From: Geobacillus thermocatenulatus
Lineage (GTDB): Bacteria > Bacillota > Bacilli > Bacillales > Anoxybacillaceae
Length of the DNA: 64,000 nt
Assembly (NCBI RefSeq): GCF_002217655.1
Contig: NZ_NEWK01000002.1
Location: 993,164 to 1,057,163 of the forward strand
Direction of reading: 5' to 3'
Below the pieces are notes generated by a model. That model had not been told where the DNA came from and did not search any database. It saw only the letters and a list, made by a program, of their open reading frames with translations. Below, piece after piece: positions 60,191-61,352 of this stretch (position 1 is the stretch's first letter; every line of letters begins with the position of its first letter). The translations under genes and the position numbers were made by a program.

Positions 60191-61063
60191 CTAACTTTCA
60201 TTTAGCAATCGTTCAACTTGCTGTTTTAATACAGGAATCTTATTTCGAACGACATCCCACACAATTCGATAATTAATGGAGAAATAACTGTGGATCAGCA
60301 TATCCCTCATGCCAGCCATCTTTCTCCATTCGATATATGGGGATGCTTGCCTGATTTCGTCTGGAATGTTTTTCGCTGCTTCTCCAATCACTAATATGTT
60401 TTTAATGACTGCATCTGATACTAAATCATTACTGTAGATGAGCATTTTTAATTACAATAATTTCCATGTTCTAAGAGACAAACAGGATACTCCTTAGGCC
60501 ACATGGAGCTGTTTTTTGATCACATCAATGGGAATATCTTGCTTCGCGGCGTCATCAATGAACTCGACGACGCTGTGGCCTTTCCGCGATCGAAGAAGCT
60601 CCAGTCCAGCGGAAAGGGTTTGTCGGGATTCGGCGATGCTGTACACGCAGGAGAGCAGCACCACCGCCCAATACCGTTTCACCCAGTGATGGACATCGGT
60701 CAACGTTCCCGAAAATCCCTTGGTGGTCAAGGCATCGACAATGTGAACGAGATGCTTCAAGACCGGTTTGGAAAGTTGCAGCGTCAACCCCAAAGTGAAG
60801 AAAAACTTGTCGATTCCTTGGTGATGTGCTAATCTATTCATGGGACATGAACCTCCTTGTGGGTAGTTGGTAGCACATCTATTCTAACCAAGGAGTCCGG
60901 TTCATGTCTCCTTTTTTGTTTGATTGTCAATTTATGTTAGCGAATTTGCTCATCTACAGTCATTATCTAAAAAGTCATCATAAGAAAGCCCTTGGGTGTA
61001 CTTCTCAATTTTCTCTGCAGCAGCCAAAATATCTTGCCAAAAGACGCTAGGATCCCTCTGCAT
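60191..61063 (-). pseudogene. hepT: hepT toxin gene split by ISa copy 2
   Basis: The gene starts at ATG 61063, reads MQRDPSVFWQDILAAAEKIE, and is broken after DDFLDND at 60960. It resumes at 60431 as DLVSDAVIKNILVIGEAAKN and ends at 60191. Removing 60426-60959 (ISa plus one 6-base duplication) restores an exact 112-codon frame. The HEPN nuclease motif R-x4-H-x-Y is intact in RDMLIHSYF, so the toxin was inactivated by insertion rather than by active-site mutation. The start overlaps the 3' end of mntA by 17 bases, as in HepT-MntA type VII systems. Confidence 0.92.
60432..60959. mobile_element. ISa copy 2, 528-bp internally deleted derivative
   Basis: The ends CTGTAGATGAGCA and TGCTCATCTACAG are perfect inverted repeats. 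The target duplication TCATTA flanks it exactly (60426-60431, 60960-60965). Inside, on the minus strand (60494-60841), a 115-codon frame joins the transposase N-terminus (MNRLAHHQGIDKFFFTLGL...DVHHW) directly to its C-terminus (KRYWAVVLLSCVYSIAESRQ...KKQLHVA). The catalytic middle is deleted in frame, so movement needs a full transposase elsewhere. Confidence 0.93.
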
Positions 61064-61352
61064 ACTTAACACTCCTTAAAATAGTCGGCTTTAATCCTGG
61101 TTTGATATCATCTACAATCACTAAATCCACTGGTTTTTGAAAATGATCTTCCAAACTCAGTTTCAACTCCATATAATGATCAAACGTCACCGCATTATCC
61201 ATAAATTCTACCAACACATCAATGTCACTCGATTCCCTTTGTTCCCCCCGACTGTACGAGCCAAATAACCCGATCCGCTTCACACCATACTTTTTCTTCC
61301 ATAAATCTAAACATTTCGACATTTCATTAAGGATGTCTTGTTGCGATAGCAA
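61047..61352 (-). CDS. mntA: MntA-type nucleotidyltransferase antitoxin
   Basis: This 101-aa minimal nucleotidyltransferase has the active-site signature GSYSRGEQRESSDIDVLVE (GS-x10-DxD) and a third acidic position in PVDLVIVDD. MntA antitoxins silence HepT by adding AMP residues near its HEPN site. The TTG start at 61352 lies 6 bases after AAGGGGGG. The gene is intact, whereas its toxin partner hepT is split by an IS, a tolerable order of loss. Confidence 0.88.
   Translation of the reverse strand: MLSQQDILNEMSKCLDLWKKKYGVKRIGLFGSYSRGEQRESSDIDVLVEFMDNAVTFDHYMELKLSLEDHFQKPVDLVIVDDIKPGLKPTILRSVKYAEGS

What the first reader, a model, noticed from the sequence alone, without database searches (positions are those of the whole stretch)
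60191..61352. HepT toxin gene split cleanly by a non-autonomous IS, antitoxin intact
Removal of the 528-bp element and one TCATTA copy restores a perfect 112-codon HepT with its R-x4-H-x-Y site. The insertion is therefore recent, and toxin loss left MntA as an orphan nucleotidyltransferase. Exact excision could restore a working type VII toxin-antitoxin pair.
Basis: seen in the sequence. Interest (0 to 1): 0.7.

Follow-up and report, generated by a model that had tools for sequence, protein, structure and literature searches.

The report
Bacterial toxin gene split by mini-transposon
In a bacterium of the heat-loving genus Geobacillus, a short transposon remnant has landed in and broken the toxin gene of a toxin-antitoxin pair while the antitoxin gene stayed whole; this is an ordinary kind of event, though relatives suggest that the toxin tends to be lost before the antitoxin.

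Summary
Confirmed. A 528-bp element (60432-60959; perfect 13-bp inverted ends; 6-bp target duplication TCATTA) splits a hepT gene that follows an open mntA with its GSX10DXD motif. The element is an internally deleted derivative of an IS701-family (ISBsm1-like) insertion sequence. The genome also holds a full-length 1371-bp relative with the same ends, a second 528-bp copy, two 402-bp copies and a 192-bp copy. Read apart, both hepT pieces are open and gap-free against natural relatives, so no second lesion is seen. G. icigianus and genome G001 carry the gene uninterrupted. The 3' piece, with R-x4-H-x-Y, gains an in-frame ATG from the element's end but lacks residues 1-33 of 112; probably inactive. 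Restoration by exact excision has no support here. New context: the near-identical G. proteiniphilus allele (3 mismatches in 648 aligned positions) lost hepT by a different lesion. Of 35 related loci, 19 have both genes open by script (2 with doubtful toxin starts), 9 have only the toxin broken or absent (8 if identical orphans are merged), 0 only the antitoxin, 6 both, 1 is unresolved. That fits toxin-first decay. Ordinary in kind, mildly interesting as a data set.

The parts
60191..60431 (-). hepT 3' piece (241 nt incl. one TSD copy and stop)
   Evidence: 98.7% protein identity to G. icigianus HepT, no gap or stop; Pfam PF01934 89.3 bits, cut-off 23.5
60191..60445 (-). 84-codon ORF whose ATG lies in the element's terminal repeat, in frame with the hepT 3' piece
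   Evidence: whether it is translated is unknown
60284..60307 (-). R-x4-H-x-Y motif (RNase site and AMP-acceptor Tyr)
   Evidence: translation; motif definition from PMC7641770 passages
60426..60431 (.). target-site duplication TCATTA, left copy
60432..60959 (.). 528-bp internally deleted IS701-family derivative
   Evidence: full-length relative L037 998-2368
60432..60444 (+). terminal inverted repeat CTGTAGATGAGCA
60947..60959 (-). terminal inverted repeat, other end
60494..60841 (-). 115-aa ORF: the transposase's first ~53 and last ~62 residues fused in frame across the deletion
60683..60684 (.). deletion junction (element positions 252|253; about 840 bp missing against the full-length copy)
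60960..60965 (.). target-site duplication TCATTA, right copy
60960..61063 (-). hepT 5' piece (104 nt from ATG to end of TSD copy); its frame stops inside the element
61047..61352 (-). mntA, 101 aa, TTG start, open
   Evidence: Pfam PF01909 60.1 bits, cut-off 21
61218..61262 (-). GSX10DXD motif of MntA
   Evidence: translation; motif definition from PMC7641770 passages

Best explanation
A Geobacillus chromosome carried a type VII-like mntA-hepT pair next to copper genes. A 528-bp deletion derivative of an IS701-family (ISBsm1-like) insertion sequence, moved in trans by the transposase of a related full-length copy, inserted in codon 35 of hepT and duplicated the 6 bp of target that span codons 33-35. 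Each hepT piece is now cut off: a 37-codon 5' ORF that ends in the element, and an 84-codon 3' ORF with the catalytic motif but without residues 1-33. The toxin is therefore most likely inactive and MntA has no local partner. Losing the toxin first is tolerable because MntA is still present, whereas losing MntA first would expose the cell. The insertion, the derivative's kinship to a full-length IS and the open mntA are shown; mobilisation in trans, loss of toxicity and the selective reason are inferred.
For: Element anatomy and TSD. Second 528-bp copy at 99.6%; 402-bp (x2) and 192-bp derivatives with 7-bp TSDs; full-length L037 with a 395-aa transposase, a 7-bp TSD and the same first 16 bases. 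The L037 transposase scores 233.8 bits against IS701 model NF033540, cut-off 150; a plasmid match at 84.6% over element positions 251-528 is annotated 'IS701-like element ISBsm1 family transposase'. IS701 members ISGka1/2 of G. kaustophilus transpose actively and give 4-9 bp repeats (PMC8024623, passages). Uninterrupted natural alleles L056 and L083. Independent hepT lesions in relatives with open mntA, none seen in the reverse direction.
Against: The second 528-bp copy (L035) and L044 show no TSD, so not every copy looks like a simple insertion. The one copy fully identical to the derivative on both sides of the deletion (L039) lacks both ends, so the direct parent is not shown to be active; L037 is 91% alike. 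Residual activity of the 84-codon product is not excluded. No same-species allele was available. NCBIfam's HepT and MntA equivalog cut-offs are not reached.
Confidence: 0.9

Rival explanations
1. The element does not abolish the toxin: its end supplies a start codon (ATG in the terminal repeat) and perhaps a promoter, so a shortened HepT with the catalytic motif is made and still needs MntA.
For: The ATG of the 84-codon ORF lies in the terminal repeat, in frame; the element's 115-aa ORF is co-oriented and ends 48 nt upstream. An IS701 element of G. kaustophilus drove transcription of its neighbour (PMC8024623 passages).
Against: Residues 1-33 are absent, including the invariant F8 and the near-invariant L9, D11, I12, A15, A16, K18, K21, Y28 and F31 of the 11-sequence alignment. 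No clear Shine-Dalgarno sequence before the ATG (by eye). Promoter-like hits no more than in shuffles, 2 against a mean of 2.8. An inserted copy has about a 1 in 3 chance of such a frame (inference).
Confidence: 0.06
2. The insertion is a reversible switch: exact excision regenerates the toxin gene at a meaningful rate.
For: Perfect 6-bp duplication; both pieces otherwise open.
Against: No empty allele from the same strain in hand; the element is non-autonomous; no excision trace seen; short duplications are generally poor substrates for exact excision (general knowledge). The near-identical G. proteiniphilus allele carries a different lesion, not a footprint of this element.
Confidence: 0.02
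3. The orphan mntA is kept by selection as an antitoxin-only gene (anti-addiction, or cross-neutralisation of the genome's other HEPN proteins), and toxin loss is adaptive rather than merely tolerated. This adds to the best explanation rather than replacing it.
For: 8 of 9 rows with open mntA and broken or absent hepT keep GSX10DXD; a second MNT/HEPN pair and a lone HEPN gene with R-x4-H-x-Y (by eye) are present in the genome.
Against: The G. proteiniphilus orphan MntA has GS altered to GL, and 6 of 35 loci have both genes damaged, 1 more unresolved, as expected for plain decay. The MNT protein of the second pair is only 39% alike over 54 aa.
Confidence: 0.2

Closest known systems
HepT/MntA (HEPN/MNT) type VII toxin-antitoxin, S. 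oneidensis SO_3166/SO_3165 (PMC7641770, passages seen)
   Same: Antitoxin gene before toxin gene, PF01909 + PF01934, GSX10DXD and RX4HXY motifs
   Different: hepT interrupted here; NCBIfam equivalog scores below the cut-off of 60 (MntA 54.6; an intact relative's HepT 44.5)
IS701 family, ISBsm1-like (annotation); ISGka1 and ISGka2 of G. kaustophilus (PMC8024623, passages seen)
   Same: IS701 transposase in the full-length relative; 6-7 bp duplications fall in the 4-9 bp range reported
   Different: The window copy lacks about 840 bp of the transposase gene. I did not compare it with ISGka1/2 sequences directly
MITE-like and mobile-insertion-cassette derivatives of IS elements in Bacillales (MIC231; recalled, not looked up)
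   Same: IS ends kept, transposase gene lost, several sizes in one genome
   Different: No passenger gene in the 528-bp form; IS701, not IS231
Toxin-first decay of chromosomal TA loci, e.g. ccdO157 (recalled, not seen in a call)
   Same: Toxin broken, antitoxin kept
   Different: Different TA type and phylum

Membership tests
Type VII TA (HepT/MntA) | MNT antitoxin gene with GSX10DXD next to a HEPN toxin gene | tested here: met
Type VII TA (HepT/MntA) | HepT with RX4HXY in one open full-length frame | tested here: not met
   motif present but the frame is split in the window; met in intact relatives such as L056
Type VII TA (HepT/MntA) | NCBIfam equivalog cut-offs NF047751 / NF047752 | tested here: not met
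   window 3' piece 38.4 and MntA 54.6 bits, intact relative P0001 44.5 bits, cut-off 60; Pfam cut-offs are met by the 3' piece, by P0001 and by MntA
Type VII TA (HepT/MntA) | RNase toxicity and neutralisation by adenylylation | not testable with these tools
   needs bench work
IS701 family (non-autonomous derivative) | Full-length relative encodes an IS701 transposase | tested here: met
   L037: NF033540 233.8 bits, cut-off 150
IS701 family (non-autonomous derivative) | Same terminal repeats as the full-length copy, and a target duplication | tested here: met
IS701 family (non-autonomous derivative) | 4-5 bp duplication that PMC8024623 gives for other IS701 members | tested here: not met
   6 bp here, 6-7 bp at five other copies; the same paper reports 4-9 bp for its Geobacillus members

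The most novel reading that the evidence does not exclude
mntA-hepT pairs spread among Bacillales, in Geobacillus together with their copper-gene neighbourhood, and are quickly and repeatedly disarmed at the toxin gene by unrelated lesions, while the antitoxin persists as a stand-alone, selected protective gene against related HepT toxins.
Probability: 0.2. Interest if true: 0.5.

Novelty: new member of a known kind. Interest (0 to 1): 0.25.

Why it matters
A single IS derivative in a TA toxin gene is routine. The value lies in the comparison: one ortholog group of type VII pairs, with many natural toxin-null alleles and intact sister alleles, makes the order of TA decay (toxin first or antitoxin first) countable, and offers natural antitoxin-only strains for testing whether orphan MntA protects against incoming HepT.

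Tried and rejected
Solved-structure search with the intact relative's HepT: no hit at 0.001, so helices were not mapped. MntA hits 1wot and, weakly, 5yep. Plasmid search for MntA relatives: none at 1e-15. I considered whether the deletion junction of the element marks a cryptic end: the inner site CAGTGATGGACA ranks 4 of 2160 positions for likeness to the terminal repeat in the parent fragment, and its counterpart ranks 11th in L037; suggestive only, so not claimed. I considered a footprint of the same element in G. proteiniphilus and rejected it: the lesion there is a perfect 41-bp tandem duplication of local sequence (by eye).

Sign test for toxin-only against antitoxin-only loss: 8 of 8 (identical orphans G174 and G239 counted once), one-sided p 0.006 at 112/213 codons. 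My arithmetic from the same ratio: without the window 7 of 7, about 0.011; also without L071, found by an MntA query only, 6 of 6, about 0.021; also without the loci whose toxin is absent rather than broken, 4 of 4, about 0.08. So the asymmetry is suggestive, and only modest in the strictest count. Two loci that the script called intact (G026, L068) have N-terminal toxin frameshifts by eye; I left them in the both-open count and did not add them to the toxin-only losses. G275's MntA ends about three residues early and was counted intact. Rows left out of the table: those below 60% identity (L072-L076).

Full report
What is there. On the minus strand, mntA (61047-61352, 101 aa, TTG start) is followed, with a 17-nt overlap, by hepT starting at 61063. 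At 60960 the hepT frame meets a 528-bp element (60432-60959) with perfect 13-bp inverted ends CTGTAGATGAGCA, flanked by TCATTA on both sides. The remaining 241 nt of hepT (counting one TSD copy) run from 60431 to 60191. Pfam calls the 3' piece HepT-like (89.3 bits, cut-off 23.5), the 5' piece only weakly (13 bits, E 0.087, below the cut-off), and MntA NTP_transf_2 (60.1 bits, cut-off 21). NCBIfam's type VII models are matched below their cut-offs. PADLOC lists MntA under PDC-S09, E 7.9e-34, and gives nothing for the hepT pieces.

No second lesion. Aligned apart to natural relatives, the 5' piece (101 nt compared) and the 3' piece (241 nt) show 0 and 2 mismatches to G. proteiniphilus, 2 and 2 to G. 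icigianus, 8 and 12 to genome G001, with no gaps. G. icigianus (L056) and G001 (L083) carry the gene in one open frame.

The element. The window's genome is G000 (3.56 Mb, 2 contigs). I place it in Geobacillus because the handles G010 and G006, of the same genus, coincide in coordinates with the G. proteiniphilus and G. icigianus records. In G000 the 528-bp sequence finds 34 matches. They include one other contiguous copy at 99.6% (L035, no TSD), two 402-bp copies and one 192-bp copy (7-bp TSDs), a 76% copy of 526 bp, and full-length L037 (1371 bp, 91%, 7-bp TSD, 395-aa transposase). Of 8 copies with both ends recognised, 6 show a 6-7 bp duplication and 2 (L035, L044) do not. Against L037 the element lacks about 840 bp, leaving an in-frame fusion of the transposase's two ends (115 aa). 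The L037 transposase is IS701 family; a plasmid relative is annotated ISBsm1-like. In the 14 genomes of the genus, the only matches spanning the deletion among the rows shown were in G000 (that list was cut, but it runs from the best match down, so a high-identity one would have shown). PMC8024623 (passages) reports that IS701 members of G. kaustophilus transpose at high temperature, give 4-9 bp repeats, and that one insertion drove transcription of its neighbour.

What it does. The 5' frame runs through 35 hepT codons (the last completed by the element's first base), reads two element codons and stops, 37 in all. The 3' piece keeps R-x4-H-x-Y and gains an ATG from the terminal repeat (84 codons). 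It lacks residues 1-33, which include one invariant and a dozen near-invariant columns of an 11-sequence alignment. I infer an inactive toxin. Promoter-like hits in the region are at the chance level, 2 against 2.8.

Relatives. MntA relatives were sought in 61 genomes near the window, the window's own included (20 with a match at 0.001, some of them weak paralogs), in 41 genomes of the family (15 at 1e-12) and in 397 of the order (27). HepT relatives were sought in the same family and order samples (16 of 41; 26 of 397). The samples overlap. I classified the loci at 60% identity or more, plus the four of the 22 named loci that were not already among them (13 were duplicates, 5 too distant): 36 rows, 35 loci. 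Both open by script 19, of which 2 (G026, L068) have N-terminal toxin frameshifts by eye. MntA open with HepT broken 5 (G000, G010, G022, G199, G067) or absent 4 (G045, G174, G239, L071; G174 and G239 have identical MntA in the matched stretch). MntA broken or absent with HepT open 0. Both damaged 6 (G019, G209, G096, G161, G411, G003). Unresolved 1 (G407, split over two contigs, two rows). The asymmetry has one-sided p 0.006 for 8 of 8, about 0.02 without the window and the MntA-only find, and about 0.08 if absent toxins are dropped as well. Draft-assembly errors should hit both genes alike, but an 'absent' toxin means only that no match of 50% identity lay in the flank held, and it may have been replaced by something I did not recognise.

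The closest allele. The stretch 60960-62009 has 5 mismatches in 1050 aligned positions (and 23 gap columns) to G. proteiniphilus; copA then falls to 65-89% over 62010-62609, so the block shares a recent history, probably by recombination. That allele lacks this element but has a perfect 41-bp tandem duplication in hepT that shifts the frame, and its MntA has GS altered to GL. Two nearly identical alleles thus lost the toxin by different events after they parted; reads were not available to exclude an assembly error in either.

Neighbourhood. hepT-mntA lies between a multicopper-oxidase-like gene and copZ/copA-like genes (names recalled from motifs, not run through a library). Matching stretches on both sides or on the oxidase side were found at several Geobacillus and Anoxybacillus loci; in G. 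icigianus the oxidase gene is not at that place. G000 has a second MNT/HEPN pair at C2:926.5-927.3 kb, a lone HEPN gene at C1:606.9 kb, both with R-x4-H-x-Y by eye, and a fused MNT-HEPN frame of 251 aa at C1:913.8 kb.

Literature. A search for HepT with MntA held 45 papers, of which 25 were listed; one for type VII/HEPN/MNT/orphan held 12, all listed. By titles and abstract starts I saw none on hepT decay with mntA kept. Searches (TA decay in general; 15 of 120 listed; orphan antitoxins and IS; 20 of 121 listed) were seen as listings only. PMC7641770 was seen in passages.

Verdict.

Noticed in passing
L035, L036, L042-L047; window 48676-48951 and 60684-60959: The 276-bp right end of this element family recurs at nine places in the genome at 99% or more, each starting at or one base before CAGTGATGGACA, with several different left neighbours (own left end at two break points, truncated IS110 and other transposase genes, other sequence): a recurrent internal break point, possibly a cryptic end.
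   Followed up: partly
59996-60129: Dispersed repeat of about 134 bp with many copies in this and other Geobacillus genomes; as RNA it folds better than shuffles, z -3.4; no Rfam match there at gathering score.
   Followed up: partly
59919-59995: 77-bp copy (86%) of the copZ-like gene's 3' end and downstream sequence next to the multicopper-oxidase-like gene, probably a remnant of rearrangement.
   Followed up: no
62010-62609: The copA-like gene looks mosaic: identity to G. proteiniphilus falls abruptly from about 99% to 65-89% and rises to 92% after that.
   Followed up: no
41571-41803 (+) and 54436-54631 (-): T-box leader and cobalamin riboswitch above Rfam gathering scores.
   Followed up: no
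L047: A solo right end of the element lies near cas-like genes and repeated LNPSPFRLN-type translations that look like a CRISPR array (by eye).
   Followed up: no
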